Shown here one piece after another: positions 2,498-64,000 of a stretch of DNA of 64,000 nucleotides. The notes below the pieces were generated by a model, which saw nothing but the letters and a program-made list of their open reading frames with translations, searched no databases and was not told the DNA's origin. Every line of letters starts with the position of its first letter. Positions within the stretch are counted from its first letter, which is position 1. The translations under genes and the position numbers were made by a program. This DNA comes from Polytrichum commune (lineage: Eukaryota; Streptophyta; Polytrichopsida; Polytrichales; Polytrichaceae), in NCBI GenBank assembly GCA_950295325.1, contig OX485804.1:19778001-19842000 (forward strand), in the 5' to 3' direction.

Positions 2498-3125
2498 GAC
2501 GATCTATTTGTAAAACGTCAGGTTCGGGATACCCAATGAGGGACAACTGACCTGAGGCAATAGCATGCAGGATCCTTTCGAGGATGCAGCGGATGTGCAC
2601 TCGACAAGTGAAGGGAACTGTTCCTATTGCTCAAGCCCAGAGTGCATTCACATTGCAAGGGTTTCTTCCAATTATCTAATGTCAGAGGATGACAACATGT
2701 TTGAGGATCCTGAATCCTCGAATTTGAGGTATAATGAGGCAACAATCAACGAAAGCAGGCTAGATGTAGTAGTTGCTTCAAGTTCGCGACAGACACAAAC
2801 TCCTAGTGTTTCATCACCACAGAGCCCGCAGAATGGACAGGTCAAAGCATCGGAAGTGGTATACTTCACCGGAAGGCTACAGGAATGGTTCGAGCGCTCT
2901 AATTCAGAGCTGATGGCAATCTCTAAGACCAGAAGGAAAAAGTCACTTGAAAAAGCGAGGAAAGAACTTGAGGAGGACCCCGCGGGCATAAAGAAAATGT
3001 TGCGGTCCTTGGGGAAAGAGGATTTGATGACACTTATTGTCAAAATGGCCAATAAACTGGAGGAGCTCGGAAAATTTGGTGAAAGTAAAGCCCTTATTGA
3101 TTCGGTAAGGGACAACTTTTTATAG
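1697..3125 (+). CDS. Unrecognised two-exon protein, about 206 aa
   Basis: Exon 1 runs 1697-1762. Its ATG sits in a good plant context (AACCATGG) and encodes MDLVVEPVGSAVHFSGDDCV, ending in FL before a GTATGT donor. Exon 2 runs 2571-3125 after a CAG acceptor. Both junctions are phase 0, so the frame is continuous. The protein has a short Cys pair region (CSYCSSPEC), an acidic Ser-rich middle, and a C-terminal half (about residues 120-206) rich in Lys, Glu and Leu that should be helical. I do not recognise the family and assign no function. A start at the internal ATG (2565) would give 186 aa without exon 1, but that ATG overlaps the proposed splice acceptor. The intron holds a (TA)n tract. The gene lies about 1.2 kb upstream of the ABC transporter on the same strand. 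Confidence 0.55.
2464..2496. repeat. (TA)n microsatellite
   Basis: An uninterrupted run of about 16 TA dinucleotides, inside the proposed intron of the first gene. Confidence 0.9.
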
Positions 3126-3789
3126 GTCTACCCTGTCTGGATAAGAATCTAATGACTTCAAATTGGAATCAGCTTGTTAGTTCTGAGCAACTCTGTCTTG
3201 TATTGGACAATTTTATGCAAGAAGAAGGGGATTTTAGAATCGTCAAGGTCACATTTACAATGAATGTCGGATCCGTGAAGTATGTAGTCCTGTGCGCCTT
3301 ACTTTACATTCTACTGGTGATGAATAAACGCAGATAAGGCGTCCTACACCTACTGGATATGCTGGTGCTTGCTATATGCCCAATCTCGTTCTCACAACAA
3401 AATTTCAAGCCCATTGAGAATGCCACGTTGACTCCTAAGTTGAAAAAGTCAGTCGCTTAATTAGACAGGAGCATTATTCCATTCCCAGGGGCCATTTTCA
3501 ATCATCAAAGCCACCATGGTTATGTGTTAAAGCTTGTCGATAGATGGGCATACCACCTAAACATTCCTTGATGTACTTCCTAGATTCCAGATTTGTACCT
3601 AAAATATTGACACCTTTATCTGGTGGCCTGCACGGACCGTTCAACGAGCCTCCCTATTTCAACTCTGGTGTAACAAGATGGATGTTTTTCTAAAAGCAAC
3701 CTTCCCTTGCAGTATAACAACAATCATTGCCGGATCTGAACAATTAGATGATAGTCTGAGTGTGTCCTTGTTTCCTTTTTCAATGGCAG
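3126..3789. other. 3' flank of first gene and upstream region of the ABC transporter
   Basis: No exon supported. It should contain the 3' untranslated region of the preceding gene and the promoter and first exon (start codon) of the transporter, but I could not place the latter. A 61-codon frame at 3152-3337 directly follows the upstream stop and looks like 3' UTR. Confidence 0.4.
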
Positions 3790-3918
3790 CTTTTGTCTAA
3801 GAAGCCTCGACTGCAGACGTCCTATTCACACTTAACTGGCATCGAGCAGCTTCTTCAGGATGGCCTGCTTGCATTCTTGCTCAAAATAAGGGCGATGTTG
3901 CCTCAATATCCACCTCAG
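3790..3918 (+). other. Possible 5' coding exon of the ABC transporter (unresolved)
   Basis: Between a CAG acceptor and a CAG|GTAACC donor lies a 43-codon open block containing LLQDGLLAFLLKIRAMLPQY, ending in PPQ. This resembles the stretch just before the conserved VEVRF motif in PDR N-termini. It ends in phase 0, but the next candidate exon (4371) needs two carried bases, so they cannot be joined directly. Either an exon lies between them or one boundary is wrong. Confidence 0.35.
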
Positions 3919-4370
3919 GTAACCTCAGAAGATTACTTGTGCCACTTTAGTGGCTTCTTCACTTACAAAAGCGAATGTGCTTGTAAAATAAAGGCTACCA
4001 GTCACTAGAATATGACCTGGGGCACAAGCTACGAATCTGTCAACACTTTCATATTCTGGCAACCTTGTCACCCTGCAGCTGTCAGTTGAGTATTTATTTA
4101 TTTATTTATATTCACTAATTCCTTCAGTGACAATGGTTTGCCTGTGCACTGTCCTGAAAAGTCAATTCTAGCTCGATACGAGACCCATAGGCCAGTTTGT
4201 TTGGTAAGAATTGGAATGGTCAACTTCTTGACTTTATTATTATTATTATTTTTATAAACTTTTATTTGGTCTCTCACCTTACTGGCTGTTGATCGAAAAC
4301 AAACTGTCTATTTTTCAGGAAATACTGTCAACCATTTTTTGTATGCTTCCTGTGTCCTTGTCTGCTACAG

Positions 4371-7300
4371 TATTGAGGTTCATGAGTTACTCATCTACAG
4401 TCGCAACAATACTAAGATGCAGAGAATAACATCAAATGCAGGTAGTGAAGTTCAATCAAGTGAATTTTTACGCTCAAGTGCTAGGAGCAAAACAGGGGTA
4501 CGAAACTGTTGGCTCAGTTTGTTTCAAATGTTTACTACCCTGCTTTGCTGACAGGCAAATAACGCAGCGTTTCACCATCCTCGACAACTGTTCTGGCTAC
4601 CTAATGCCTGGATCACTGACCCTTGTGTGCGGACCCCCAGGCTGCGGTAAGAAATAGAAATTGGTTTGATATATTGAGATTCAAATTCCCCAAGTGTCAT
4701 TTCAGCACTCTTTCGCGTTTACTTGTGTTGGGGACAGAATGGACCGCGTTGCATTCTATTAGTTGGTTATAGCCTCCTTTTGGGGATGATTTGCTGCCAG
4801 GTCCCATAGAATATTTACCTCCATAAAGTGAATGAGATTTATTTGTTTTTGTCAACAGAGATGTCAACTCTCTTCAGATTGAGAGGTATAATATTGGCTC
4901 TGGCTTCTGAATGGAGTACAGAAATTGATTCCCCAGTTATCCCATACTCAAACTGTATACATGGAGTAAGTGGAACTGCTGTATGTAACTGAAGGCTATC
5001 AAATTCTGTACTGATGGTGATACGTGATGGTTGTCAACTTTTGAATGTATGCGGTGAGGTACAGGAAAGAGCAGTTTACACAAAGCATTGGCTGGAAGAC
5101 TGTTTATTGATAAGACAACAAACCTCACCGGAACTGTAACTTACAACGGGAAAAGCGTAGATGAGATTCAAGTTCGACGCATAGCTGCTTTCATTGCACA
5201 AACAGACAGGCATTTGCCTACGCTCACTGTTCGGGAAACATGTGAATTTGCAAACTCTTGCACCAGTCATTTTGGGAAAGGTCAACAGATTGGTGGCCAG
5301 GCTGTGCAGGTGGGGTTCCTCCTGGCCCCTTTTTTTCTTACAACTTAGGCGGAAGTGAATGTGCCTTTCGTCCTTCTATGACCCCTCTTGCTGATTATAT
5401 GGATTATGGTCAGAGTGCTGTGTAGGATTATTTGGTTGCTATGATCAGGTTATATGGGTGTTTTTTCAAAATTACCTTGAATGCATCTTGCTGTGTTTAG
5501 GTAACCTCTACCAGGATACACTGTGGATTTATTCTTGATGTATGATGGCAGGTAGAGTTCTGCTTTACTTAAAGTAATAGGTCTAGGGAAGATCAAGATT
5601 TCATCCCTATTTGAAACCTTGTTAGGAGGTAGGTCCTCTCTTTGATATGTTGAAGGTGTAGCTGTGTGTCTTCGGTGTCTCAAAGTACTGAAAGGGGTTG
5701 ATGTAGGTCACTAACACGTATCTGGAGTCTAAGGCAACATGGATCTTGCATGTACTGGGGCGTTAACCTCTGTGTTGCATGTTACACTTCCCCAGAGTAT
5801 AATATGATCCAAACTAGCATTGCGTAGTGGACGCTTTTAGGATAACAAGAAATTTGTCGCTTGTGCATGGAGTGTGTAAAAGTATCAATAGTTAATTATT
5901 TGTCCTCCCTAGGATTTCATCCCAAGCGGAACTTTTGTTCTGGGACCACAGATGGAGATAGAGCTTGGGGGAGCAAACCTGCCTTTGGAGCTGACCCTAC
6001 ATCTGCTTGGTCTCCGTGGTGTGGCTGACACTGTGGTAGGGAATGCTTCAATCCGTGGAGTTAGTGGAGGGGAACGTCATCGCGTTACCACAGCTGAGAT
6101 GGTCTCAGGCAAGTTCTTCCACAAATCTTGAACAGTTGAATGCCTGCAACAGAGGTTTACTATGCTGCCATATATATTGATGGCCTTGACAGCACCATGC
6201 TTTGAATTCACCACTCTGAAGCTGTGTGAATGGATGTGGTTCAGGGACTTTTCTGGTATATCTCTTAGACGAAATTAGCACAGGGCTTGACAGCTCCGCC
6301 ACCTATGACATAGTTTCAGCCTTCCGCACATTTGCAAGAATAAGGCGTTACACATGCCTTTTTTCTCTGCTTCAGCCCTCACCAGAAGTCTTTGACCTCT
6401 TTGATAGGTGAGAAACCATTGAAATCTTTTTAGTGCAATATTTGTTGTGGGCCTTCGTGTATCTTACCTCAGCTTGCCCTGCACTCAAGGACAACAGAAC
6501 ATGAAGTATGCGCTAAGGCTTGGTCGTGAAATGGAAGTGATAAAGAGAATGTTGAACTGGTCCCACTAAAAGATACCTTTAGTAATGCCTTGCTATGTGG
6601 GTGACATCGGGTATTAATGCACGTAGTATCTATGCAAAAACATCTCAGTATGTCATATGGATTCAAACCGTTCCACTACCAAGCCCCTGTAGATGGACAG
6701 CCGTTCACTGTTGTAAATTACCTCATGTTACACCTTGTACTGTCGTAGTTTTTCCGATATAACTACCACTTTTCTAGCTTACTTATGCTGCATGAGGGTT
6801 TGGGTTCTAGTCACTAACTCAAAACATGTGTGTATTTCCATAGGATAATTGTTTTGAATGAAGGCTGCATAATATTTCAGGGACCACGTGAAGATGTGCT
6901 GCACTATTTTGATAAGCTTGGGTACGCCGGGATGCCTTTTTGAATCTATATTAACCAGAACAATTCCTAGGTTAAATTTTCCACGTTGCAACTTTGGTTT
7001 CTCCATATGGGGATGATTCGGGACTATGTTTTTCAACTCATCTCAATTCATGCAGGTATGTAAAACCGAAGCATGTTGATGTAGCAGATTTCCTTCAGGA
7101 GGTCACCACTGCTGAAGGTGTTCGGTTTTTGAAACCTGATCATAAACATTTCACTGTCGAGGAGTTTGTCAGGGCTTATATGGCCTCTGACATGTACAAG
7201 GATGTTCTTCGTATTGTAAACAACCAGGAGGTGAGTCATATCAACTGCAGCTAAGTGCTTGTGCATTAGTCTCCATTTAAAATAATACTGGGCAAAATCT

Positions 7301-10300
7301 GTAGGTCATATTAATTGTACAATAATTGACTTTCCTTGATTTTGTGCTGTAGTGAAATGTCAGAGTTTTTTTTATTGCTAAACATAAATGAATTGAATGG
7401 AATCTGAGTATTAAAGGAAGGGTTTGTTTGTGAGCGAACTTGTGAGTTTGTGAGGTCATTGCGAGATGTCCTCAAACCCCGGTCCTACTAGAGCGTTTCT
7501 TGGTCCCAATGGAGAGCCTTTGGTCTGGTCAGTAGGGATGCATTGCGGAGGCTTTAATTCGTTTCTATCAAATATATATGAAACTTCTTTTATGTTTTGG
7601 TATTTTTTGACTGTTCATTGAAAATAGGAAGATTGGTCCTTAAGGGATTCTGGTTTTTTTCTCCCAGCAGGAAGCTTCACTTGCCTCAAAGTAGTTTGGG
7701 ATATATGGGTCTGAATTGAAAGTTCATTTCCCCTAAAATGTGTTGTTGTCATGGGTTATGTTGTGAGAGGGCATTACAACATGTGACCCCCTGGCACAGC
7801 ACACACTCGTAACCATAATGAGCATAAGCAACCAAATTCACGAAGGACAATGAACAGGTACATAGAATCTGGTATCCAGCATTTCTTTGGCTGATCAGTT
7901 CCAGGAAGTTTCTGGTTTTTCATTGTCAATTCAGTTTCATTTACGTCTTCCATGGATATTTCCCTGCAGGATACAGAAGAGCTCTGGCTAGAAGCAGCCA
8001 AGCCTCTAGGCTTAAAAATCAAGGATAGGATTGGCATGGCAGGTGAGGTATTAAAATAAAGCAGAGTTTACTTTGAGCAGAATCCTGTATGGATCATTTT
8101 TCTCCTTTTCCAATTGAAACAATCGCACTGGCAAGTTTATAAAATGTAGATTTGGATTTTAAGTTTCATAAATATGACCATGGATTGAGAATGACAAGTG
8201 GTAATGCATCGCATTAAAGATGGTCATTGCCCGATTTGATTAATTCTAAAAGTTATATTGTACCTGATTGAAAGGAGATAGACATGCCAAGAAATGTACA
8301 CCAACTCCTCGTATTGGACACTTTTACTCAAATTGCCATATCGGAAGGAGGCACCTATTTTTGGAAATCCTACCTTGGTCGACATTGGACATAAATGTTA
8401 ATCTTCATATTAATTTATGACTCCTTGCTCGATTTGTCTAGATCGCAACTCTATAGTCTACAACAAAACCGCTTCTTGCCAGTTCTCAAACTTAGAATAT
8501 GCCACTGGGAGCGGAACTAATGTCAAAATTGGACAGGTGCCCTGTATGAAAATCTCACAATGGTAATTGGATTTCCCAAGCCTAGGTATAACTTGAACAA
8601 ACTGACTCCTGAACATCACTTCAATATAGATATTTGGTACCAATATAGATCATCTGCATCATGGATGGAGCAGGTCAGAAGGGAACAGTGGTTGTCGATG
8701 AAGTGGAATCTACAGGAACAGCCACTCTGATAGATATACAGCAGACAACACAAGTACAAGCTGGAGATCAAATCACTGCGATTGGAAGTTCTGGTGAACT
8801 TGAGTACCTTGCACTTCCTGATAGCAACTATGATGCTGCAAGCATTGTGGCAAAAGTGCAAGAGGCCCCAGGACATGTTCGTTTACAGCTTGAACGGCCA
8901 CGTCAACAGGTCCCCTCACCTTTAACTTTTACTCTAATATTGTTCAAATGTGTTTTTTCTAATTGTTTACCGAATTATGTCTGCTGCCTGAACTCCTTCA
9001 GAACTCTGCTGATTTTGATTCCTCAATTCAAGACAATTTTAAATTTGTCGAGCTCAAATGCCAGAATCTAGTGACTTGCTCAATCTCTCAAATCTTGTTA
9101 ACAGTTTCTCTGTGTGAATTTCTTGAATCTCGGTCCCTTAACAGAATGCATCGTTGCAAACTTAACCGCTTGAAACTTACCTTGTAGTTTCATACAAAAT
9201 TCAATACCGCAATATAAGTTCCTCACCAGGTCCCTCCAGAGAATGCGAAGATATTTGATGAAGAGTTCGTGCAAGATTGGTGGGTTTCAACAAAAACAGT
9301 ACTGCGTAGGCAGGCCACTTTAGCTCTCCGGAATAAGAGTTTTGTCTACGCGCGGAACCTGCAGGTACTTGGATCCACTGAATCACAAATTTATTAGGTC
9401 AGTTATTTTTATTCTAAGTTTCTTCAGAGGTTATTACTCTATTAATTTTCTAAATTTAGGCAAATAAGTAGAATTTGCCAATCATTTTTAAATCTCAGTC
9501 ACCAGGTAAATTATGAAGATATGTGGGTTTACCCTTCGTGTATGAGAAGCTCTGGTGTCCAGTGTTTTCCATTATAATGAAAGTAGCTTGCTGATGTTGG
9601 TGGTGAGCAGCTTGTGGTTCTAGGAATTTTTACTGGAACTTTATTTTATCAAGTTCCAAACACAACAGATCGCTCAACTATGGACCTTCGGAAGTCTCTC
9701 GCTTTCCTTGCAGTTATGACATTGTCACTAAATACTGTGTCTCAAATACCTATTCAGCTTGATGAGCGCTCAGTTAAGTCCCTGATCAATTTCCAATACA
9801 TGATCAAAACTTGAGTAAATATGGTCATAAGCTTCCCGATGTTCTTTCTTGCATCGTTTCTCAAGCATGGTTTTGAAGGTCCATGTCTATTGCAGTCTCT
9901 GTACATCGACATTCTCTGTACAATCACTGGAGCAATAATTGTGGCCAGTAGGGTAGCCACCCCCTTGAAATTGGAGGTAATTATGTTTCTGCTAACTTGT
10001 ATGTGATAACCTGCAACTTGCAACATGCAGGTTTTCGAAAAGCAATACGCAGCGAGGTTTTTTCGGCCAAATGCATATGTTCTTGCATGCACCCTTAGTC
10101 AAATTCCCTTCTCATTCATGGAGGTATTCCTTACTGGTACTTTTTAAAAGTGTCAAATCTCATTCATTGTTCAGATACATATACATACAATTTATCGATG
10201 TTACATGGTTGTGTCAGATTCTTTAGCAAATATATGAAAGGGATCGTCGTGGTTACTAATTGAATAGCAAATGCAGATGCTGATATATACACCACTGATA

Positions 10301-13300
10301 TATTGGCTGACTGGGTTAACGTCCTCAAACAATGGTGCGCATTATATTATGTATATACTTGTGGTCTTCATCGAAGCAATCACTTTCGCAATGCTGATCC
10401 GACTGCTAGCTTCTTTTTGCAAGACCAAAGAGGCTGCCAGTGGTCTTGCAGGTTGCATTTCATCCTTCTGGTTGTGAAGTACTCTTCTTTTGTATTTATC
10501 GATGTTTGGCATATAATTTCATGACTTACATTGTTTGACTTACCCAGATTAGTGGGACATTAGGACCTGTTGAGCCTTCAACCTTCGATAGTAAGTAAAT
10601 ATGTCACGATTAACGAGGAGAATTTAGTTTCCTTGAGATCCAATGCAGAATCAATTCTTGAACTTGCACAAATGTAATGGTTTGTCTACGTCAGGTTGCC
10701 CATTCTCCTATGAGGTCATCATGCTTTTGCTGTTTGGACTAAACTAGGATATAAAGCTTCTCAACTTCAACTAAGAATGTTGCTGAAAAAGAAATACAGG
10801 AGATGAAATGTTACATCCGTTTCTCATGACACTGTACCAAAGCGAATTTCTGCTCTGTGTGTGTGCAGGTCTTGCCATCATATTCTTTCTCTTATTTTCT
10901 GGCTTTCTAATTGCAAAAAATAAGGTGCCTGACTGGTGGATTTGGGTTTACTATATCAGTCCTCTTCAGTGGGGAGTCACAGCGCTAATCTGCAACGAGT
11001 TCCTTTCACAAAAATATTCTCAAGTATGTTGACAAAATGAAATCTTGTACTGAAAATTGAGCCACTTATTCTAGGTTCACAATTTTGTGGGCTTTGAAAT
11101 GTTGTTTATTTGGGAGCCATAACAGGTCATAAGGAAATTATTGCGTTCAAGGTTTAAGATGGTTTAAGGCTTATGATTACTTCCCAGATTTGATTTTCGA
11201 ATTGGATGATAGGCTTGTCAGGACTCCGTTACCTATTGCGTTGGAAGGAGCCAAATGACTGTCGGACAGGCATACCTGGATCTCTATGAGCTTCCAACCA
11301 ATATATTTCGTGGTTATTGGGTCCCAGTGATTGTTTTGTCCTGTTACTACTGTTTTCTCACCTACTTGTGTTTCTACACAGTTGCTAATGTTCGGCACGA
11401 TGAGGTGAATAAACTGGATTCCTTCGCAAGGTTTTAGAGGTGTAGGGAAATTAAGCCTTACATTGTGCTTGAAGGCAAATGTGCACCTGACTTTTGCACT
11501 TCACAAAATTTCTATTTTAGTGATGAGTAAAAGGCAAAGTAATAGCAATGTGTGCTCTTGTCAACAATGATGTTTTTGAAATGTTAAGCAGGTGTCTTCA
11601 AAACTACGCGTATAGATATAGTCCTAAGAACAAGTCTGAAGGACTAAATTGGCAAGTTCTGGACACCTGGTAGGTGAAATTGCCACCCGCTGCACGTCTG
11701 TTACGCGATCCAGAGTCCCAGCCAAGACATAATAGTAAATCTGCTCCTGCAAAGATGAGGTTCCCTAAATTTGGTCGGGCCAAGAATCGTTCAGCGGCTA
11801 TCGCACCTACGATCTCTTTTGAGCCTATGATTATGTCCTTCCACCAGATTACATATGAGGTAAGAAAATATCATCAGTTAAGGATACATTTTGCATTTGT
11901 GCATTTGCCTTTTCCGTTAATCTACTTGAGGGTTCCAACAACAGATTCATAGCAATTGCAAATAAATGAGAACTGCATCCTTGTACATTATTCAGTTACA
12001 TAATCTTTTGTGACGTTCAGGTGAAAATACCAGGTATAAAGGACCCCCGGGTGCTACTGTCAAATGTATCAGGGTTTGCTAAGCCAAATACTATGACAGC
12101 TTTAATGGGAAGTAGTGGTGCCGGGAAGACAACCTTGCTCGATGTTTTGGCTGGCCGTAAGACAACAGGTAGAATATCTGGAGATATTCTCATCAATGGC
12201 TACCCTAAAGTGCAGGAGACGTTTGCTCGCATTTCTGGGTGAGTATGTTTTATGATTGCTCCAAATTCTTGCTCATCCACTGACAACAAATCTGAAGGAT
12301 CTTAACATTGTCAGTAAATGTTATTGATTGGTAGTCACAACGCTCTGAAACATACAAAATAAAATAAAATATATACAGTCACGCTTTCCATTCTATATTT
12401 CTGTTTTCCCCAGACCATAAAGATTTTTAGAATTTGGAGTGATAATCTTCTACCCTTCCCTCTTGAATCATATTGACCATCAGCATCTCAAGCTTCTAGT
12501 GTTAGAAAGTGTAAACTGAAAGAGTAATGAAAGTTTTTGTTGGTATCCTTTATGATTGCAATATGGAATTCCAACACTTTCTAGACAGGTATGTGGAACA
12601 GAATGACATTCATACACCCTTTATTACTGTGAAGGAGTCTCTGGAATTTAGCAGTGCACTTCGCCTTCCAAAACAAACGTCCTCAGCAAGTCGTCAAAAG
12701 TACATTAATGAGGTAACCTCTTTCACACCTATCTCACATAAGTTATGTGTGTATACTACGATGAAGACCAATTAGACCATTGTTCTCTATGCAATTTTCT
12801 CAGATTGATAGTAAAGTTGATTTATGGCAATCTGATTCCGGTCCACTAGGTTATGAATCTATTGGAGTTACATGACATAAGCAACAAACTAGTCGGCATC
12901 ATTGGAGATGCAGGCCTCTCTGTGGAGGAAGCGAAACGTCTCACCATTGGCGTAGAACTGGTAGCCACTTGCCAAACTTGGAGATTTCATTATAATTGTT
13001 CACATAGCATTCTTAAGTGGTGTAGTGGGTGTTCTCCGTAGAAAATCATTTTGGAGAGTATACTCTCGGTGAGTTTCTTTTTGGCAAGTTCTTTAAGTTG
13101 AATCTTGGTAGATGGATGAGGGCATTGTCCAAACATAAGTAGCAATGACGTTTCGATTAATGTGAGCTTGCCACTTGACTATGCTTGGCATTAATTGATG
13201 CATGTAATCAAGGACCTTGATTCTTGATTTTATTCTCGAATTGAAAGAGAACGTCCTTGGCCATCCTTAAGAATGCTATGCACATGGTTAGTTGCCCTCT

Positions 13301-16300
13301 TGTTTCTTAGTGAATTTCCTTTGAGATTGATTCTGTCATGATTGTGGTTATGCAGGTATCAAACCCAAGCATCTTGTTTCTTGATGAACCAACTAGTGGT
13401 CTGGACAGTCGAGCTGCCCAAATTGTGATGCGCGGTGTTGTTAACATTGTTGGTTCAGGGCGCAGTGTTATCTGCACCATTCATCAACCTAGTCGACGCC
13501 TCTTCATGTATTTTGATCACTTGATGTTATTGAAGCGCGGAGGTGAGGTTGCATACTTCGGACCGATCGGAGAAGGAGCAAATGAGCTATTGGTATGTTC
13601 ATGCAATCCAATAACCTGTTACATGTTACAATATTTTCACTAAATTGGACAGAGCAACACAAGTTCACCAATACCAATCATCTAAAAGTTGATCATCGAG
13701 TCCTCATTTGCTCCCCTGATTTCATTTCAGTCCAGAGGAAACCTATCCAACTCTCATCAATCGAACAAGCTTCAGTCCTCAAGTGATTCCCAAACTGCTT
13801 CTCTTCCCTAAATCATCGAACACATTATATGCAAACATTTGGTCTGGTCAACGGGTTATATTTACATTATAATTACATCTCCACAAACTCCCAGTTTTCT
13901 CGTATACCGTGACCCTCCTCGAATAATAGCGAAACATTTTGATGCGTACTTTTAATCAAAACGTTGCTATTGTACACATTTGTTTGTTTCAAATACTTCA
14001 ATTTTTTATGAAGACCCTAATGGTGCTCTTTTGGTTTTTATGGTACAATAAAGTGCTCGACTTAACTCTAAATTGCTTAGCATCAAGGTATTGGTGATGG
14101 AGTTTGCATCTCAACAGTATTTCCACACAACCCTGGTCCATAGAGATATTAATTGGATCTCTAAGTTTGCACTATGATTGTGGAAATAAATTCATTTTTG
14201 ATATCTGAATCTCAAAACCTACGTTTACTTTTAGAACTATTTTCAATCACTTCCTGGAGTGAGGGAGTGTTCGGTGAACCAAAATCCAGCATCATATATG
14301 TTGGAGATTATTGGAGCTGGCATTGGACATACAGCTCAACGGGACTTTGGAATTGATTATCTGAACAGCTCTTTGGCTCAAAGAAACTGTGAGTTTTGTG
14401 AATCTTCATGACCTCCATAAATTGCAGATTATTTTCTTTGTACATCACATTTATTGTTTAGATTTCATTCCAGGCGGCTCTAAGTGCCTCATTGTTCCAT
14501 TTTCTTTTCATTAAATAAGCCACCACTAATCTGGTTGATACTTGGAATCAAATAGAATCTGGTTTTCCATGATAAATAATTAATATAGTAGCCGTTTCAA
14601 ATTTTGCAAACAATCTTTCTACTGTTAATCTCGATTGCCAATGTCCAACTCATGCAAGCAAACGTTATCTCTTTCTTAAACTGTTGCATCTGAGAAGGAT
14701 GGCCTGGTTATTGAAGGTCTATTACTGTGTTAATTGCAGTTGAGGAACTTGAGGTACTCAGGTATGGGAAGGGGAAGCTTGGTAAAGAGCCTCTTGTAAG
14801 AGGATATGGTGCAACATGGTCGCTTATGTGTATAGTTGTTGTGAAGCGCCAATTCAGGACATATTGGCGAAATATTTCTTACAGGTCAACCTGTTCTCCA
14901 GTTTGATAGTTGTGCCTTGTGACACCTGGTTATTTTCATACTAAGAGCCACTTTACACTATGGCCAAGGGCCGTGACCATGGAATTGTGAGGGCCAAACT
15001 TATAAAATAGTTTAACAAATTAGAAGATTCTGTGGAGATGCACGCAAACTATCTCAATTTACACAGCTTTGAAATTCTTCAGTTATTGACTGGTGTGTGT
15101 GAGTTGCCTTGGTTGCAGTTTTGGGCGAATGATGTTGGTGGTCATACTTGGGCTTATTTTAGGAAGCACATTTTGGCAGGTGTGCACGATCTAATACTTT
15201 TGACTGGTTTTGTGCATAAGATAGTTGATTCTTATCTTAATTTAGAACATGAGCCTAGTTGATGTATCCCTTGCTCACTAGTTCTGATTATAATTTAGTT
15301 TTAAACCATGCATTCACGAACTTTGTTTGGTAAAAGATTTGCAGAGTTTAAGTGTGCATCATTTCTCTGGCAGATAAAATATGATACTACTCCTGGCTTG
15401 GTGTCTCGGATGGGCCTAATATATATAGCAGTGGTGATGGTAGCTGTGTCAAATGCAAACAACGTCATCCCTCAAGTAATGATCAATTATTTTCTGACAC
15501 TAGCACTACAATAGGTCTTTCAACATGTTAAAATACCGACTAATTATATCATAACAATATGAACTGCCAAACATAAAGTTTTGAAGGATCTTATGAGGGT
15601 ATGATTTTGGTCTTACGATATTGCTTGAAATGTCAAATGTTCTTTGTCCAGGTAAATGCAGAGCGAGTAGTATACTACCGTGAGCGTGCATCCAATATGT
15701 ATCCGGTCTTATTTTATAGCCTATCTTGGACTTTAGCAGAGGTACATAAGTTTTCCATTCATGTATCAGAGTGAATAAATTATCTTCATGTGTCTTATGC
15801 AATGCAAAATTTGATAAATATTATGGGGGGATAAGAATGGAAAAATAATCACCTCCCCATGATTATTTACTTGGTATTCATGCCCATCGGGATCGTTTTA
15901 CAATGGGAATGTGAGGTTGAGAGAAAAATGTTTTTTTCCACTGAAGTTGTATGGTACCTCGTGACTATCCCACAATGTGATATCATATGATCTGTAAAAT
16001 TGTGGTCTACTTGAAGAGAATAGGCAGGATCTTATTATAATTGGCAAGATGGATGGCAGATTCCTTACCTTTGCGTTTCGACCCTCCTTTTTTGTTCGGT
16101 ATGTTTCACAATGGGCGGAGTGGCTACGAATTCAGGACGTAATTTTTTTGAGTTTTGGTTCATTTTCTTCGAATACTCCGCCTCCATCACGTTCTTTGGT
16201 ATTTTCCTGGCAATGTTGACTCCAAATGCACAGGTCAGTAACTCACTTGCTACATAACTTGGATCAAGACTTCCAGATGCAGTAGCAGCCTTCCTAATTG

Positions 16301-17236
16301 CACCTAATTGCAATAATGTTTGTGTCGTCTGCATGTCACACTTGGTGCATTCATTTTTGTTTATATTGGTGTAGGAACAAACAATAATCAGATGCTTGGT
16401 TCCAATGATTGACTTTGTTGTGTTCACTGCACTCCCAAAAGTTTACACACGATCTATGAATGAAACTTGTGCCTATGTCAATGTCAAGAACTATGTCATA
16501 TCCAGACACCAATTGAATGAAATGATGTTCAAAACAATCAAACAAACAATTCATAATTTGTTCTTGTTCTGCAGGTTGCAACAATCATCATTCCAATAAT
16601 TGTAAATTTCTGGTTAGTCTATATACTCATCCCAGTCTATCAAGATTTTTTCAAAGTGAGTAGGTGCTTCCACTTTGTGAGGATTATACTTCATTGGAAA
16701 CATGCGTTTCCATGTTATATCAAATTTGTTTTCCGCTTCTGAGATGATAGAATTATAACTGTGGAGAGCAGACAATCATTTATACCCAGATTGTAAATAA
16801 ATGATTAAAAAGCTATTCTCAAAAAGCACTATATTCTTGAAAATCATTCCATAGATTTGTTATGTGTTGAAACAGGAACATGACATCTGGGTTTATGATT
16901 CCAAAGAACAAGATCCCGCAGTTTTGGATTTGGCTGTATTGGGTAAACCCAACACAATACACCATAAACTCTTTGACAGCCATTGCTTTCCATTGTGATG
17001 TGGAGGTTCCCCCATGCAATGCATGTGTAGAGCTGAATCCCGCAAGTTGCCCAGATTGCAATTGTGTTCGTGTCACCGATGAAGGTAATTTATTGGCTTG
17101 GTTCATTATGCGGGATAGTATGTCATTAGATTACCCATCACGTTATAGGAACATGGGAATGTTAGCTTTCTTTAATGTGTTGTTTATGTGTGCTGGTGTC
17201 ATAGCTCTCAGATTTATGAAATATGACAGAAGGTAG
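4371..17236 (+). CDS. Full-size PDR/ABCG transporter with PDZ-like insertion
   Basis: Exons: 4371-4497, 4568-4646, 5065-5309, 5913-6108, 6245-6407, 6844-6921, 7056-7230, 7970-8042, 8674-8909, 9230-9364, 9611-9772, 10031-10123, 10277-10451, 10869-11023, 11222-11404, 11674-11859, 12021-12238, 12589-12712, 12850-12960, 13356-13592, 14235-14388, 14740-14884, 15119-15179, 15374-15475, 15652-15741, 16060-16233, 16575-16612, 16876-17236. From 4568 every junction keeps phase; the first exon is less certain. The total is about 1,425 aa plus a missing N-terminus, the usual PDR size. NBD1 has Walker A GPPGCGKSS, signature VSGGERHRV, Walker [11 protein letters not shown], and the LLQP variant in place of the H-loop His, as in plant PDRs. 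A PDZ-like segment follows (8674-8909), then TMD1. NBD2 has [29 protein letters not shown] and TIHQPS, then TMD2. The order NBD-TMD-NBD-TMD defines the full-size ABCG/PDR class, which exports lipids, hormones and secondary metabolites across the plasma membrane. The substrate is unknown. The intron after 6108 is GC-AG. Confidence 0.9.
14944..15000. mobile_element. Truncated Tourist-like MITE end in a transporter intron
   Basis: TAA followed by GAGCCACTTTACACTATGGC matches the left end of the element at 34446 and, more loosely, those at 54244 and 56879. It lies in the intron 14885-15118. No matching right end is visible, so only a terminal fragment remains. Confidence 0.45.
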
Positions 17237-50023: not shown

Positions 50024-50233
50024 TGTTGTGGGTTTGACAATCATTAATTGAGTTAGTCTCGCCCATGGAATGATGTCCTTAGTTCCAATTCAATTTTGAA
50101 CAGTAGTTATCATATGACCCACATTTATTGATACCTCTTAAAAATGTCTTTACTTTCTTGTAAGTAGTTTTTCCTCTAATACTACCTCTAGAATTTTTTG
50201 TTTGATAAGTATTGAGGAAGTCTTTGGGGTGCT

Positions 50234-52473
50234 ATGACAAAGCGTCAACGTACAATGACAGACATGTTAGTTAGGGTGAGAAATCCTAGAGAGTCCGTGT
50301 TAGAAATTGAACATGTTGCTATCAATCCATCAACTTCAGCTATAAACAACGATGAAGAAAATCACATTAAAAATGCCAATGAAGAATGGAAAGATGCATG
50401 GTATGATCTATATGATTGGGTAGAGTTCAACAAAGAGTCAGGAAGAGTGTTTTGCAAAACTTGTAGAGAAAGAGGTGGAAAATTTGTGTATGCAAGTGAG
50501 GGTTCAACTAATGTTAAAGTTTCAGCACTACAATACCATTCTAAAAGCAATGAACATAAAAAATTGTCATATGCTAAACATGTGGGCAAAAAAACTTTGG
50601 AGAAATGTGTTGCTAAAGCTAACTGTGCATGTGACGAGGTTGTGATGTCACTCTTTAAGGCTGTTTATTTTCTAGGAAAAGAATCTATTCATTGCCACAA
50701 GTTTGCATTTTTGTGTGAATTGCTTGTGTCTTGTAAAACTCCAATAATTGAAAAGTTGTATCATCATGAAAAACCATGTGTAGACATGATGTTTGCAATT
50801 TTTACTAGACTTCAAAGACAAATCTTAGACATAATTCGAGATTCTAGATTTTTTGGCATAATGATTGACGAAAACACTGACATTTCAGTTTTGGGTCATC
50901 TTATAATTTTCGCTACTTTTTTAGAAGGTAGTGTTGTTACAACTAGTTTTTTTGGTTTGTTGTGGATTGTTGATGGGCAAAGAAGCTCAAGTGTGATTTT
51001 TGACTTACTTATTGGTGCTTTGAAGATTTGGGGTTTAGATATGAATAAGTATGTAGATTTTGGATCTAATGGTGCATCTACCATGGTGGGTAAGAATACA
51101 GGTGTGGCTACACTTTTAAAAAAGGTGAACCCTTTTTTTACCTCTACCCATTGTGTTGCTCACAGAACAAATCTAGCTGTTTTGGAAGCTTCTAAAATAG
51201 AAAGTTGTAAAGAATTGTCGTTGGATGTTGATCATGTATTGAATGTATTGGCTGGTCATTTTAACAAATCTTCTAAAAAAAAATCAGCTTTGCAAGCTTT
51301 ACAAGATGAATTGAACGATGCTCAAAAAACATTAAAAAGATATCACAAAATTCGTTGGTTTTCTAGATTTGAAGTTGTGACAACATTATGTGACTCGTTA
51401 GAGTCTGTATTGGTATATTTGCGTAATTCTTGCTCCTCTCCTAGTGTTGACGGAACTCACGTTTTGTATGACAAATTCAGAGAGTTCAAATTCATTTATG
51501 TTCTCTATTTTCTAGCAGACATTTTACAAATGTTTGGCAAATAGTCTAAGATTTTTCAATGCAAGCTTGTGGACATTTCTTATTTAGGGTCCATTGTGAA
51601 AAGCAAAATAGCTACTATAAGAATGTATTTTTTAGTTGAGGCTTGTGACTTGAATCATGAAACTTTCAATCCCTCTTTAGGATTTCATGTAATTCCATAA
51701 TTTGGACCTCCAGGTGGATTTCTCAGGCGTTTGTCAAGTGAAATTAGAGGGTCTAAATTTCATAGTGTAAACATGATTCGGGATCCTAGTGGGGTTGATT
51801 TAGAAGTTGCTTTGTCTTTTCAAAGGTTGTATGCTCAAGAAGTTTGTGATGCATTAGAAAATAGATTTGTTGACAATGATCTTATTGATTGTTTTAAGAT
51901 TTTGAGCCCTACTAATTTGCCTCAAAGGCAAGTTGGCTTGAGTTCTTATGGAGTTGTGTAGTTGTGTAGTTGGATTTGCTTTTGAAACATTATGGAGAAG
52001 AAAAGCGTATTGGGGGCACAACATATCCTCCATTGGTAAATGTTGTAGCTTGTAAGCAAGAATTTTTTGCTTTCAAAGTGCAAGGTAGTTGTGAATAGAG
52101 TGATCGTACCTTCGAGGATTTGTGGACATCTATAAGTTGGAGTCCTTCTTTGAAACTGAAATTTCCTAACCTACTAACACTTGCCGACATTGCAAGATGT
52201 CAATGTGTTAGTACTGCTACTTGTGAGAGAGCTTTCTCTGTGCAGAATAACATCAAGCAGAAGACTAGGAATCAAATGACAAAAACACACTTGGATAGTG
52301 TGATGCGGGTGGCGATTGAAGGACCAACCAAAAATTTTGAGTTTATTTTGGATGAAGCTATATCTTTGTGGAAGGATTCAAGAAAGTTTCGATTCTTGTT
52401 TACTAATCCTAAGAAATATCTTGCAGGAAGAGTAGAGGTTGAATCAGAAGATGGTGAGGACTTTCACCCTTAA
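50234..52473 (+). pseudogene. Decayed hAT-superfamily transposase
   Basis: An open block of 436 codons starts MTKRQRTMTDM. It includes a TTF-type zinc-finger region (about residues 55-110: WVEFNKESGRVFCKTCRERG, then ALQYHSKSNEHKK), a catalytic-domain start (IMIDENTDISVLGHL) and THCVAHRTNLAVLEASK. The same reading continues past in-frame stops at 51542 (TAG) and 51698 (TAA). A tandem 8-bp duplication of GTTGTGTA (51953-51968) then shifts the frame, and another stop follows near 52096. The end, 52120-52473, carries the hAT C-terminal dimerisation region (CVSTATCERAFSVQNNIKQK). Related full proteins (the ZNF862-like hAT group) run about 600-800 aa, so this copy is full length but inactive. Terminal inverted repeats were not found. 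Confidence 0.85.
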
Positions 52474-58087: not shown

Positions 58088-58825
58088 TTTAACTTAATCA
58101 CCAGGGTGTCACTCCTGTCGAATCGCGGATAGAGTGTTCTCGCGGCGTCGATTCTGGCATCTCTTAAGTTTGGATCAGTCTACACGTCTCCGCAACGTCA
58201 ACCAACATCCTTGAATCGTACTCAGATCTCACAGCAATTGATTTCAGCAGCAGAGAGGCAGCCAACGTCGTCTTGCAGGTCGCTTCTCATCGTCGACTTG
58301 GTCATGATGCTCTTGTTGGGATCGGTAGTAGTATGAGAGCTGGATGAGGATTGTCAGTTTTTGTAAGGGAAGCCCAATCTGGTCAATCGTCTCCTCCTTG
58401 AGAACAGGGGGCTCGAAGGATTTGTTTTAGGTTTGAGCTACATGCATCCCCGTCCCCTTCTGGCCAGTGCAGGATTTCATAGCCGGGGTTTTTTAACTTT
58501 AGAGTGTGATCGTCGCCTTCGTCCTGTTCTTGGGAGAGTCAAGAATTTTGAGAGCTGATGAGGGTAAAAAGAGGAAACCCAGACTGGTCTACCATCTTCT
58601 TTAGAACGGGTTTAAGTTGGGTTCGAGTTACATCCTATCCGAAGAGTTACAGACAGGAATTTTGATCGGGAGGGGTTAGCGGGCTTGGAAAATTTCCTCG
58701 GTGAAACTTGTCAGCAAGTTGTGGGTAGAGGTTGAGTTGAAAGTGAACTAAGGGAATTTAGAGCCGCCTTGCTCCATTGTGTGCACGAGGATTTAAGTCT
58801 GTAGTGTGGCATTTGGGGTTCTACG

Positions 58826-61800
58826 ATGGGGGCGATGGCGGTAGCAACTGGGCTGCCACAGGTCTGCCCGACCAAATCCTGCAAACCGGGAAAAATTTAT
58901 GATGTCACGGACGATAAATCACGGGGCGGCGAAGCTCACGATCATCAAGACGTGGAAGAATTAGAAGAGGTTGAGGGTTTATCATCCGAATGGTGGGGTT
59001 TCCAAACACCGGTGCACAGGGCCGCTGTGGAGGAAAAACATGCTCCCATCCATGGCGTGCCTCATGATGTGATGACGCTCATCTTTTCTCGGCTGCCACG
59101 GCAAAGCTTGGCAAATGCTCGCGTAGTTTGTTCGTCGTGGAAGCGTATAGCGGAGCATCAAGAATTAGCTGCTCTGCGCCGACAGGTTTGGCCTCCTCTT
59201 CTCCCACTCTACCTATTCAATACGTACAGACCGACGCACTTACAATACATCTAACACTGTATACACATTAAGTGCGGCATTAAAATTGGCATGCCATGTT
59301 AATTAGAGTGGTTTTTATGACCGGTCATATAGCACCAAGTGTCCCATGACGCCTGCTCTAGTTGCCACCAGTAATGAACCAATGTGGGTCGAGGATGAAG
59401 AGTGTGGGCCACACTAAATCAGATGTTTAGTGTAGTGTCAGAGTTAATTACGGAGCCAAATCGGCAGTCATGCTGTTCATTGAAATCTTGCATTTCAGTG
59501 TGTATTCTCGTCTTCACATTGGTCAAGGTGAAATTTCCTGGATTAACGGACACAAGAATACCTATCTGCCCCCTCGTTGAAGACCTTACCCAGGGAAAGC
59601 ATCACTCCAAATTCAGTAGACCGCATTTCAAACCATCCAAGAATTGCTTCGCAAGAGAAGATAGAGGCATTTGAGGTATTGCTGCATTGATTTGTTTCTT
59701 TGTTGGCTGCAAGTTTTTGAGGGATGTCATGTTTTTGAGTTACAGATCGGTGTTGCGGAGAGCTGGATATACGTACTTGCGGAGACACCCGAGGAGTCGG
59801 CATTCCGAGCGTATGATCCCATCGCCAACAGGTGGTCTGTGCTCCCTCCCACTCCCGGTCGCACCAGCGACGAGCAGTGGCAGGGCTTCTCTTGCGTTGC
59901 GGTCGGCCACAAGCTGCTCCTTATCGGCGGCTCTCGAGTTCACAAAAGCCCCATATCCGACAGATTCTCATCAGGTCAGGTTCACTCCTCAAAACCATAC
60001 AAAACCCAGGACCACAGTATGTACAATTTTTCACTCCATGCTGATGGTAAAATCCAGAGTGCAGACATAGTTTTAGGACCATTTTGACCGATTTTGACCT
60101 AAACATCCCTCGATCTTGCTCAATGTCAAGCACTCTCTTGAGCCATTTTGATTTCCCAGATGTAGTAGCTTTCGAAATCGTCTATCATCTTCACAAGCTC
60201 GACCACGAAATTACCTGCATGGTTATGAGGTATAAGTGCTCACATCTCCCAGATATACTTTGACAGTTTGATGACTTCGAGATCATATTATGTCTGCAAC
60301 TTTTCAGCAATCTGTAGTTTCTGTAATCTCAATCAATCATATCAAGTTTCTCGTGAAGACAACGAGATTCGTGAGTATGATGATTTTTTGAAGTTCTCAC
60401 TCCTCAATTTATTACGGGAGGTCCATAAGCATTTTATGTTTTTTGATCGTATAATGTGATTCCCTGATGGTATGGTGACTAACAACTTGTCTTTTCTAAT
60501 ACTAAGATCTCGAGAAACCCTTGGAGATGTTATGTTTAGAGCGCATTTTAGAAATGATTTACCCCTTCAATATTATGGTGTGGAGAATACCAAGAGATTG
60601 ACGGCTGTCTTGAATTCCTTGGTATTTGCATTGCAGGTGTAGTCTGCAGCGATGTCATAGTGTACAACGCGCTCACGAACAAATGGTCGAAAGCGGCAAA
60701 CATGACCACGGCACGAAGCTGGTTCGCAGCAGCGGTGGTCGGAACGAAGGTCTATGTCGCAGGAGGTCAAGGTAATACGAAATTTCTCGACACGGCCGAG
60801 GTCTACGACTCAGAAACAGATCAGTGGGAGCCCATTGGCAGCATGGGGAACAGGAGGTCGAGCTGCCATGGCGTTTGCCTCGATGGCCAGTTCTGGGTTA
60901 TCGCTGGTGAATATGTGAAGAACCACTACGACAACAACCAGCGGAGCTCTGCGGAAGTTTACGATGCCGAGACGGATACATGGCGCTTCATCCCCAACAT
61001 GTGCATTGATGACAACAAGGTTCGCACGCAACCTGCCTCACTTCGCCTAAAAACTTCTGACAGCCCGAGTCGAGAGCCCGAACTTGCAATTTTGAGAGTT
61101 CTAGTCAAATTCTAACACGATTTCATCCAAAGCTTAAATAAGCTTGTTGGAGATGTTCCACATGGGATTCGTGCGGTGCCATCTTGAGCATTGTTGGAAG
61201 CTCAGTAGAAAGCTGAAGCTTTTATATTGGAAATCCTAATGGTGTAAAGTGGACTCGAATGAACAAGCTTAAGTTAGAGGCCAACGTGACGGCTTCATTC
61301 TTCAAGCTCTCAACCTATCCAGTGGAATAGGTTTAGGGCTTAGGACTTGAAAATTTGAATCCATGGACTACATAACCGGCGGCGGAGAGTGGACGATGAG
61401 CTGCAATAGCAGCAGACATCCATGTATTCAAGCCGTTTATGGGACATTGACCGGTCTGCGCATGGACATATACTGAAGGCTATGAATGATGTTTTCTCTG
61501 CGTGCATAGAAAATTGTACAGGAAAGTTGTTGGAAGTGCTCTCCGCTTGGATGAGCCACCAGTTATGGCCTGTTTTCTCACACTGCGCCATTCCTTGACT
61601 GTTCAGGTGTTAGGGCCCAGTGCAACGGTGAATGGCGAGCTCGTTTGTGTGCATCAAAGAAAGATTATGGCCTACAACAAAGACTTAAACACGTGGACTC
61701 AGTGGGGACACATCAATGGGGGCGATGTGTATAGCCGACCTTACTCGCGGTTTGGATTTGTGTGCGAGGGCGTTGGCAGCAGCTTGTACGTGATCGGAGG

Positions 61801-61969
61801 CACGAGGGAGTACATGCAACACCGTCGGTACTGCACCCCACTCAATACAGTCGAGATCTGCGACCTGGATGGCACTAAGCAGCAGGCGTCGCAGATACGG
61901 TGGAAACTGGGTGCCGATATGGGCCACTGCCGAGGCACCATGTCTGCTTCCACCGTCTTGTCGTTGTGA
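58826..61969 (+). CDS. F-box/kelch-repeat protein, about 444 aa
   Basis: Exons 58826-59185, 59746-59974, 60637-61019 and 61607-61969, all in phase (the stop ends at 61969). The N-terminal 75 residues are variable and acidic. The F-box follows (about 75-115: HGVPHDVMTLIFSRLPRQSL, then ANARVVCSSWKRI). Kelch repeats begin with AESWIYVLAETPEES and include YDPIANRWSVLPP, LLLIGGS, YNALTNKWSKAANMTTARSW, KVYVAGGQ, YDSETDQWEPIGSM, WVIAGE, YDAETDTWRFIPNM, YNKDLNTWTQW and LYVIGG. The double-Gly and Tyr...Trp spacing gives about five blades. F-box proteins recruit targets to SCF ubiquitin ligases through SKP1/ASK; kelch propellers bind the target. Plants have many such proteins, so no specific target is assigned. 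Intron 1 holds a small ACACTAAA hairpin. The gene is convergent with the TRM gene. Confidence 0.9.
59411..59433. mobile_element. Solo ACACTAAA hairpin in intron 1 of the kelch gene
   Basis: ACACTAAA (59411-59418) and TTTAGTGT (59426-59433) around a 7-base loop; same arms as the larger MITEs. Confidence 0.45.
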
Positions 61970-62763: not shown

Positions 62764-64000
62764 TTAAATAGTGAAAAGCTGTCTACGAGGACCAGGGCTT
62801 CCCGCAGAGAGATTCAAAGATTTTCTACAGGACAAAGGTGTAAGTTCCTTAACAACCTCATCCACCAAATCCTTATATATTAACTTCTCGACTTCTATAC
62901 CAACTTCCCCAATTTCTGTTCCAAAGCTGGCCCACTTTAGACCACGAGGCCCTAAATCCTTCTGCAGAATGCTCTGGACAGTGTCACAAACATCTTCAGA
63001 TGTAGCAGATGGAATTTCTTGCAGCTCCTCCCAAATTTCCTGTACCAGGTGTTGTCCTTCTAAATTCTGGACAGCTCGTAAAGGTATCGCCTCAACCCAC
63101 GGTTGTGGATTTGCATGAACAATAAGCTTCTCTGCTAGTAGTTCATTCAAGCAGTCGAAAAGGGCACGGCGATCTAGAAGTTCCTTCTCTTTCTCTTGCT
63201 TACTTTTACACCATCCATTTAGAAAGGCATCTTCAACATTTGCAAGCGCTTTGCGGTCTTCCCGCCGACATCGTTTTTCATACTTAGCCAACCACAGTGG
63301 GTTCATAATGTGTCCTCTCGAAGAACTCTCATCAATCCAGTGGTCCTTCGTGACACCTGAAACCACCAGTAGATCACGCACAAATTCCCTCTCTTCATCT
63401 CTATCTGCTATTGATGTTCCCTTGCGGCCACACATGGCCTTAGTGTCATGAGGAAGTTGCATCTCCAAAGACCTGTTCTGGGGCTGATTGTGTTGTTGGG
63501 TTCCATTTTTACGGAAGGAACTTTCAAAGAGAGGATTCATTTCTCCAGTCATCAATGAACTTTCGGCAAGTTTGCAATGCTCCTGTGTTTTCAACTCATC
63601 GGATTGGCGAATGCTCTCCAAAGCTTCGAAGGCATCTGCAATTAACAGAAAGAAATCTCATTCCCATGAATTTCACAACTCAACCACTGGAATGTTATTC
63701 AAGACTGATAGGGTGCCCTATAGATACACTCCATTAAGAGCTAGCCATCTGTAAGGGAAGAAATCTCAAGGAGTCCTTCAACTTTTTCTCAACATGGTGT
63801 ATGGAAATCAATAGACAGGCCTGAAGAAAATTGTCACAAACTCTAAAGTGAAAGTGAAATATATGCATCATCTGTACATACCTTGCAGGTTGATAGGAGT
63901 GGTGCTGCCAGACTTGGGGCTTGGTGTGTAATCCTCCTCAAAGAGGGTGTTGTCCAGCACTGAAACTGGGCTAGGCTGCTCACACCCTTCCACCGGTTGC
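62764..64000 (-). CDS. TRM/LONGIFOLIA-type protein with DUF4378, C-terminal part, continues beyond the window
   Basis: Two exons on the minus strand: 64000 (open) to 63882, then 63635-62764. The join G|AT keeps phase. The upstream exon contains EQPSPVSVLDNTLFEED, the PSPVSVLD motif typical of TON1-recruiting-motif (TRM)/LONGIFOLIA proteins. The last exon carries the C-terminal DUF4378 region: EFVRDLLVVSGVTKDHWID, NPLWLAKYEKRCRREDRKAL, RRALFDCLNELLAEKL, and WASFGTEIGEVGIEVEKLI with LVDEVVKELT near the end. TRM proteins sit on microtubules and, with TON1 and PP2A, form the TTP complex that organises cortical arrays, the preprophase band and cell elongation. The N-terminal half, with its own motifs, is outside the window. 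Confidence 0.88.

What the first reader, a model, noticed from the sequence alone, without database searches (positions are those of the whole stretch)
8674..8909. PDZ-like domain inserted in a plant PDR/ABCG transporter
Between NBD1 and the first membrane domain, the spliced protein has [19 protein letters not shown], then [20 protein letters not shown] and ER. This follows PDZ layout: V.V..V, GD.I.A.(N)G, a helix, and a final strand ending in R. Canonical plant PDR proteins have no PDZ domain there as far as I know. A scaffold-binding module in the cytosolic linker of an exporter could localise or couple it to partners. The exon alone carries the domain, as in exon shuffling. Splice sites and phases on both sides are clean, so it is not an assembly join.
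Basis: partly seen in the sequence, partly recalled or inferred. Interest (0 to 1): 0.7.

Follow-up and report, generated by a model that had tools for sequence, protein, structure and literature searches.

The report
PDZ-like insert in plant exporter linker
A plant gene for a large ATP-driven membrane exporter appears to carry, in the cytosolic linker between its first motor domain and first membrane domain, an extra module of about 100 residues that resembles PDZ domains, the peptide-binding modules that usually hold protein complexes together; this would be an unusual way to tether an exporter, but the fold and its use are not yet proven.

Summary
The exon at 8674-8909 is real coding sequence. 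It is exon 11 of an intact 30-exon gene (2565-17236, +) for a full-size ABCG/PDR exporter of 1,628 aa. The PDZ reading is probably right but needs correcting: exon 11 alone lacks the first strand and the carboxylate-binding loop, which lie in exon 10 (7970-8042: [14 protein letters not shown]). Exons 10+11 make exactly 309 nt with phase-0 introns on both sides; exon 11 alone is phase 1/0.

A profile of 15 animal PDZ domains scores exons 10+11 at 15.4 bits, exon 11 alone 8.1; 0 of 1000 shuffles, 0 of 264 other windows of the protein and 0 of 726 windows from non-PDZ bacterial frames reach 15.4. HHalign aligns it nearly full length, P about 8e-5, above all 300 shuffles.

Against: no PDZ hit in Pfam, NCBIfam or PDB sequence searches; the C-terminal half alone is not significant; an invariant Asn is Gly; the score lies below all 39 bacterial PDZs tested; the AlphaFold model of exon 11 alone is poor. 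No relatives of the insert were found. I call it a PDZ-like linker insertion.

The parts
2565..17236 (+). Full-size ABCG/PDR transporter gene, 30 exons, 1,628 aa, NBD1-linker-TMD1-NBD2-TMD2 (start codon assumed)
   Evidence: Spliced open reading frame without internal stops, exon 29 end corrected to 16612; Pfam ABC2_membrane two stretches 3.7e-85, ABC_tran two stretches 2.2e-37
4442..7230 (+). Exons 3-9: NBD1 ([29 protein letters not shown]) and first part of linker, ending NNQE in phase 0
   Evidence: motif names recalled
7970..8042 (+). Exon 10 (73 nt): first strand and carboxylate-binding-type loop of the PDZ-like module ([25 protein letters not shown])
   Evidence: Adding exon 10 raises the PDZ profile score from 8.1 to 15.4 bits and the HHalign score from 22.3 to 28.4; GLGF region aligned with PLGL
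8674..8909 (+). Exon 11 (236 nt): remainder of the PDZ-like module (residues 584-661)
9230..11404 (+). Exons 12-17: end of linker ([13 protein letters not shown]...) and first membrane domain
11674..17236 (+). Exons 18-30: NBD2 ([24 protein letters not shown]) and second membrane domain
   Evidence: motif names recalled

Best explanation
The gene encodes an intact full-size ABCG/PDR-type exporter. Its cytosolic linker between NBD1 and the first membrane domain carries one inserted PDZ-like domain of about 100 residues, encoded by exons 10 and 11. Shown: the gene, the exons, an insertion relative to a fern-like PDR and three fungal PDR sequences, and a PDZ-profile match well above controls. Inferred: that it folds as a PDZ, and that its groove (strand 2 below the PLGL loop, helix [11 protein letters not shown]) binds the C-terminal or internal peptide of a partner. 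This would tether the exporter to a membrane site, or couple or brake ATP-driven transport by acting on the NBD1-TMD1 joint. It probably does not bind the exporter's own C-terminus, which ends MKYDRR and has no hydrophobic last residue. The helix position that is His in class I PDZ domains (recalled rule) aligns with Ala, so a class I ligand is not expected. I put the PDZ-like fold at about 0.75 and ligand binding at about 0.5.
For: Intact coding frame across 30 exons. Animal PDZ profile: exons 10+11 15.4 bits; 0 of 1000 shuffles (max 8.4), 0 of 264 other windows of the same protein (max 1.4); a second shuffle set 0 of 1000 (max 8.5), 0 of 726 windows from bacterial reading frames without a PDZ match (max 7.6); leaving out any one of the 15 PDZs leaves 13.6-16.0 bits. 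HHalign: P 7.7e-5, probability 61.8, 77 columns; with flanks 86 columns from strand 1 to the last strand, P 9e-5; 300 shuffles reach at most 19.1 against 28.4, 132 other windows at most 14.3. The AlphaFold secondary structure of exon 11 (strands, then a helix at 54-62, then a strand at 67-73) fits the PDZ order. Insertion: 125 residues where Pdr5 has 38. The module is flanked by phase-0 introns.
Against: Pfam reports no PDZ family at E up to 10 for exon 11, for the 145-residue context, for exons 10+11 or for a loop-trimmed copy, nor among the best 25 of 33 families shown for the whole protein at E up to 1, while all 15 recalled PDZs hit PF00595. NCBIfam nothing. PDB sequence searches find no PDZ. 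The score lies below all 39 bacterial PDZ hits (minimum 19.3; these were themselves picked by a profile seeded from PSD-95) and all left-out animal PDZs (minimum 31.1). The C-terminal half alone is not significant: 66 of 1000 shuffles reach it, HHalign probability 1.2. With the bacterial profile 9 of 1000 shuffles reach the score. Of three columns invariant in the PDZ set, Gly and Asp are kept but Asn is Gly. The AlphaFold model of exon 11 alone is weak (pLDDT 60, pTM 0.45), and none of the 50 rows shown, of 297 Foldseek matches, names a PDZ. The PDZ hypothesis was chosen by a reader who saw the motif, so P values overstate. No relatives of the insert, no transcripts.
Confidence: 0.7

Rival explanations
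1. The insertion has a PDZ-derived fold but no working peptide groove: it is a structural spacer or intramolecular brace packed on NBD1 or on the intracellular side of the membrane domain.
For: Helix position that is His in class I PDZs aligns with Ala, and the invariant Asn is Gly; the segment between the GD.I strand and the last helix has 8 more residues than PSD-95 PDZ3 in the alignment.
Against: The loop that binds the ligand carboxylate is among the best-matching parts (PLGLKI).
Confidence: 0.3
2. The exons encode a lineage-specific beta-rich linker expansion that is not a PDZ at all; the motif match is chance on a GD.I turn, such as is also found in TrkA_C domains.
For: TrkA_C (RCK_C) is the best Pfam family for exon 11, 13.8 bits, E 0.056, a per-model P similar to that of my PDZ profile; the C-terminal half alone is not significant; Pfam gives no PDZ.
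Against: TrkA_C covers only 26 profile positions, is far below its cut-off of 27 bits, and was the best of 24,736 families; the PDZ alignment covers nearly the whole domain and gains from exon 10.
Confidence: 0.22
3. The module is a splice cassette: exons 10+11 (309 nt) can be skipped in frame, giving exporters with and without the module; or exon 11 is skipped with a donor 5 bases downstream of exon 10 (after 8047), also in frame.
For: 309 nt with phase-0 introns on both sides; the donor GAG|GTATTA after 8047 joins exon 12 in frame, whereas plain skipping of exon 11 runs into stops.
Against: Exon 10 has the strongest donor of the 29 in the gene and exon 11 has ordinary sites; the alternative donor is weak, scoring above only 2 of the 29 used donors; no transcript data were available.
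Confidence: 0.15
4. Prediction artefact: exon 11 is intron or an assembly join.
For: None found; transcripts could not be checked.
Against: Second-highest coding bias of 30 exons, no stops, ordinary splice sites, intact frame through 30 exons.
Confidence: 0.03

Closest known systems
Plant full-size ABCG (PDR) transporters; compared here with a fern-like PDR gene on contig CAKZGI010000372.1 (L004, binned in a MAG titled uncultured Trichormus; that it is fern DNA is my inference)
   Same: 50% identity over 102 residues around the NBD1 Walker B; an intron at the same place just before the first membrane helix (FKTFQ| and ARNLQ|; L004 read by eye)
   Different: The L004 linker from VTSRR to FKTFQ reads as one uninterrupted exon without an insert; here the linker holds the 103-residue module and three extra introns, and lacks the L004 intron after FLQE
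Fungal PDR exporters Pdr5 (7p03) and CDR1 (9iuk, 9s2c)
   Same: Best PDB sequence matches of the NBD1-linker-TMD1 segment
   Different: Between the aligned stretches they have 38, 72 and 99 residues where this protein has 125, 158 and 180, so 81-87 fewer
Animal-type PDZ domains (PF00595), for example PSD-95 PDZ3, Par-6, GRIP1 PDZ6
   Same: Order of strand 1, x-L-G-F loop, strand 3, GD.I strand, helix, last strand; PLGL as in the PLGF and PLGI of Par-6 and GRIP1 (recalled sequences, checked as PDZ)
   Different: Below Pfam detection; Asn after GD.I..V replaced by Gly; longer segment before the last helix; no His at helix start
Plant PDZ proteins such as Deg/HtrA proteases (recalled; PMC3473262 seen in the search listing only)
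   Same: PDZ domains in a plant
   Different: Those sit in proteases; here the domain sits in a membrane exporter

Membership tests
Full-size ABCG / PDR transporters | Two reverse-order units, NBD then TMD, twice | tested here: met
   Pfam ABC_tran and ABC2_membrane, two stretches each, in one 1,628-aa chain
Full-size ABCG / PDR transporters | PDR-type NBD motifs (Walker A, signature, [10 protein letters not shown]) | tested here: met
   Read directly from the spliced protein; motif definitions recalled
Full-size ABCG / PDR transporters | Plain NBD1-TMD1 linker without a further domain (usual in the family, not strictly defining) | tested here: not met
   Insert of about 81-112 residues relative to Pdr5, CDR1 and the fern-like gene
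PDZ domain (PF00595) | Match to the curated family profile | tested here: not met
   No PDZ family reported at E up to 10; HMMER filters may hide weak matches
PDZ domain (PF00595) | Similarity to PDZ sequences above matched controls | tested here: met
   15.4 bits, 0 of 1000 shuffles and 0 of 264 windows; HHalign above 300 shuffles and 132 windows; but only marginal with a bacterial PDZ profile, 9 of 1000 shuffles
PDZ domain (PF00595) | Carboxylate-binding loop (x-hydrophobic-G-hydrophobic) | tested here: met
   PLGL in exon 10 aligned with GLGF by hmmsearch and hhalign
PDZ domain (PF00595) | Invariant positions of my 15-PDZ set: Gly14, Asp47, Asn53 | tested here: not met
   Gly and Asp kept, Asn replaced by Gly
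PDZ domain (PF00595) | PDZ fold | tested here: inconclusive
PDZ domain (PF00595) | Binds a C-terminal or internal peptide | not testable with these tools
   Needs a binding assay
Exon-shuffled module | Domain borders coincide with introns of the same phase | tested here: inconclusive
   Exons 10+11: phase 0 in, phase 0 out, 309 nt; exon 11 alone phase 1/0. The alignment with the fern-like protein does not pin the insert to these borders: exact removal of exons 10-11 ranks 56 of 274 positions
Exon-shuffled module | A donor gene with the same module | tested here: inconclusive
   No relative in viral contigs, genome contigs or plasmids; no eukaryote collection was searched

The most novel reading that the evidence does not exclude
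An early-diverging land plant (or its algal ancestor) built an animal-type PDZ domain as a phase-0 two-exon module into the cytosolic hinge of a full-size ABCG exporter. This would make a transporter that carries its own scaffold receptor, instead of offering a C-terminal tail to someone else's PDZ as animal ABC transporters do (recalled for CFTR and ABCC2).
Probability: 0.4. Interest if true: 0.7.

Novelty: new variant of a known kind. Interest (0 to 1): 0.45.

Why it matters
Some animal ABC transporters are held in place by PDZ proteins that grip their tails (recalled). Here the transporter itself would carry the PDZ-like module, in the hinge that passes movement from NBD1 to the membrane domain. 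If true, this gives a direct handle on how a plant exporter is placed or gated by a partner, and an unusual non-protease PDZ in a plant. It is easy to test: the module is one 103-residue piece encoded by two exons.

Tried and rejected
Exon 11 alone as the whole domain: rejected, because strand 1 and the loop lie in exon 10. Pfam, NCBIfam and PDB sequence searches for a named domain: no PDZ; chance-level hits were TrkA_C and Qn_am_d_aIII (Pfam) and a designated lysozyme and a phosphofructokinase (PDB). A second copy in the window: four probes (exon 11, linker, NBD1, NBD2) hit only this gene, apart from one 22-residue chance match at about 56.0 kb. Relatives of exon 11 in viral contigs, genome contigs and plasmids: none (two chance-level plasmid hits at E 8-9); the phage collection was not searched. 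NBD2 region in viral contigs: three loci, L001-L003, matching only NBD stretches at 26-31% identity. Eukaryotic PDR genes by a [10 protein letters not shown]-type DNA pattern: 0 in viral contigs (stricter pattern), 3 stretches in genome contigs; only L004 is a plant-like PDR, L006 matches over one NBD stretch at 27%, L005 not at all (one search printed the same hits without locus names). The same bin searched with the linker-TMD1 protein: only the L004 gene, E 0.44. Placing the insert by deletion scan against L004: the best nine deletions of 103 residues start at residues 578-586; with length free, the best spans 546-657; exons 10-11 exactly (559-661) rank 56 of 274, so the borders are not pinned. 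A first score for the alternative donor was taken one base off and redone. Paper searches: six on PDZ with ABC transporters (two returned none, 47 listed 15 of 120), one on plant PDZ proteins, one with oomycetes (12 of 23 listed): no title or abstract start listed described this architecture. Beyond listings I saw only passages of PMC10513242 and PMC9164057 (PDZ occurs 0 times in each main text) and PMC6411480 ('transporter' 0 times).

Full report
What is there. The window holds one full-size ABCG/PDR transporter gene on the + strand, 2565-17236. I spliced 30 exons by hand and checked phases by script. Exon 29 was then shortened to end at 16612, because this gives a better register (NFWNMTSG) with canonical PDRs as I recall them; the frame stays open and the product is 1,628 aa. 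All introns are GT-AG except the sixth, which has a GC donor after 6108. Pfam finds ABC_tran twice and ABC2_membrane twice. Both NBDs have complete-looking Walker A, signature and Walker B motifs (definitions recalled), so the protein looks functional.

The reported exon. 8674-8909 is exon 11. It is open in the expected frame only (0 stops, against 2 and 7 in the others) and has the second-highest mean codon log-odds of the 30 exons; none of 3779 overlapping intronic windows of 78 codons reaches it. Its splice sites are ordinary for this gene (acceptor 12th and donor 17th of 29).

Insertion. Against Pdr5 (7p03) the flanking matches leave 125 residues here for 38 there; against two sequences named CDR1 158 for 72 and 180 for 99. 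The only plant-like PDR reachable, on a contig binned in a MAG titled uncultured Trichormus (L004; that it is Azolla fern DNA is my inference), has an uninterrupted linker exon without the insert. A deletion scan against that protein agrees with roughly 100-112 extra residues in the linker but does not fix the borders.

Is it a PDZ? Pfam gives no PDZ for any of four forms of the query at E up to 10, nor do NCBIfam or PDB sequence searches. I therefore built a profile from 15 recalled animal PDZ domains, all confirmed as PF00595 by Pfam at 2.6e-10 or better. Exon 11 alone scores 8.1 bits. Controls: 0 of 1000 shuffles (maximum 8.4) and 0 of 264 other windows (maximum 1.4), 0 of another 1000 shuffles and 0 of 726 overlapping windows from reading frames of 37 bacterial loci (frames with a PDZ match were dropped beforehand); among 310 frames of at least 60 residues in the whole window the exon 11 frame is top at 7.6 and the next is 3.0. 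Leaving out any one PDZ leaves 13.6-16.0. HHalign aligns 77 columns at P 7.7e-5, or 86 columns with flanks; 300 shuffles and 132 windows stay at or below 19.1 and 14.3 against 28.4.

Results against. The evidence sits in the N-terminal 61 residues (16.7 bits, 0 of 1000 shuffles); the C-terminal 42 residues score 0.2, reached by 66 of 1000 shuffles, and have an HHalign probability of 1.2. Every one of 39 bacterial PDZ hits scores higher (minimum 19.3), though these were picked by a profile seeded from PSD-95, so weaker PDZs are missing from that comparison. With the profile of those bacterial PDZs the region is only marginal (4.6 bits, 9 of 1000 shuffles). One of three invariant positions is lost. 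The fold prediction I could run (exon 11 alone, single sequence) is weak and the 50 Foldseek rows shown of 297 name no PDZ, though the predicted strand/helix order fits. TrkA_C is as good a match in per-model terms, but it is the best of 24,736 families and covers 26 positions only. I therefore say PDZ-like, not PDZ.

Gene anatomy. Exon 11 alone is 236 nt, phase 1 to 0, so it is not a symmetric shuffled exon, and simple skipping runs into stops. Exons 10+11 are 73+236 = 309 nt between two phase-0 introns, so the whole module could have entered, or could be skipped, in frame. A donor after 8047 would also allow exon 11 to be skipped in frame, but it is weak, above only 2 of the 29 used donors. 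Transcripts are needed.

How it may work. The insert lies in the cytosolic piece joining NBD1 to the first membrane helix. The most economical reading is a peptide-binding domain that ties the exporter to a partner or adjusts its cycle. The helix residue that is His in class I PDZs aligns with Ala, and the protein's own C-terminus is MKYDRR, so neither a class I ligand nor self-binding is expected. These last steps are inference.

Known or new. No title or abstract start in the listings described a PDZ in an ABCG or PDR transporter; two ABC-family papers that include early plants do not contain the term PDZ in their main text. This covers the held open-access library only, some lists were capped, and public protein databases of eukaryotes could not be searched, so such proteins may already sit there as automatic annotations.

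Noticed in passing
6109-6114: Intron 6 of the transporter gene appears to use a GC donor (CAG|gcaagt), between AEMVS and [12 protein letters not shown]; the other introns are GT-AG.
   Followed up: partly
50216-52470: Remnant of a hAT transposon: a 442-aa frame with a zinc-finger match (zf-C17orf113) and a later frame matching Dimer_Tnp_hAT.
   Followed up: partly
58805-61966: Frames matching F-box and then kelch repeats on the + strand, probably one F-box/kelch gene.
   Followed up: partly
62767-63657: Minus-strand frame matching DUF4378 (4.9e-29), a domain I recall as typical of land plants.
   Followed up: partly
2464-2495: Perfect AT dinucleotide repeat of 16 units about 70 bases upstream of the proposed start codon.
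   Followed up: no
L004 1-2600: A contig binned in a MAG titled uncultured Trichormus carries an intron-containing plant-type PDR gene, so it is probably host fern DNA in a symbiont bin.
   Followed up: partly
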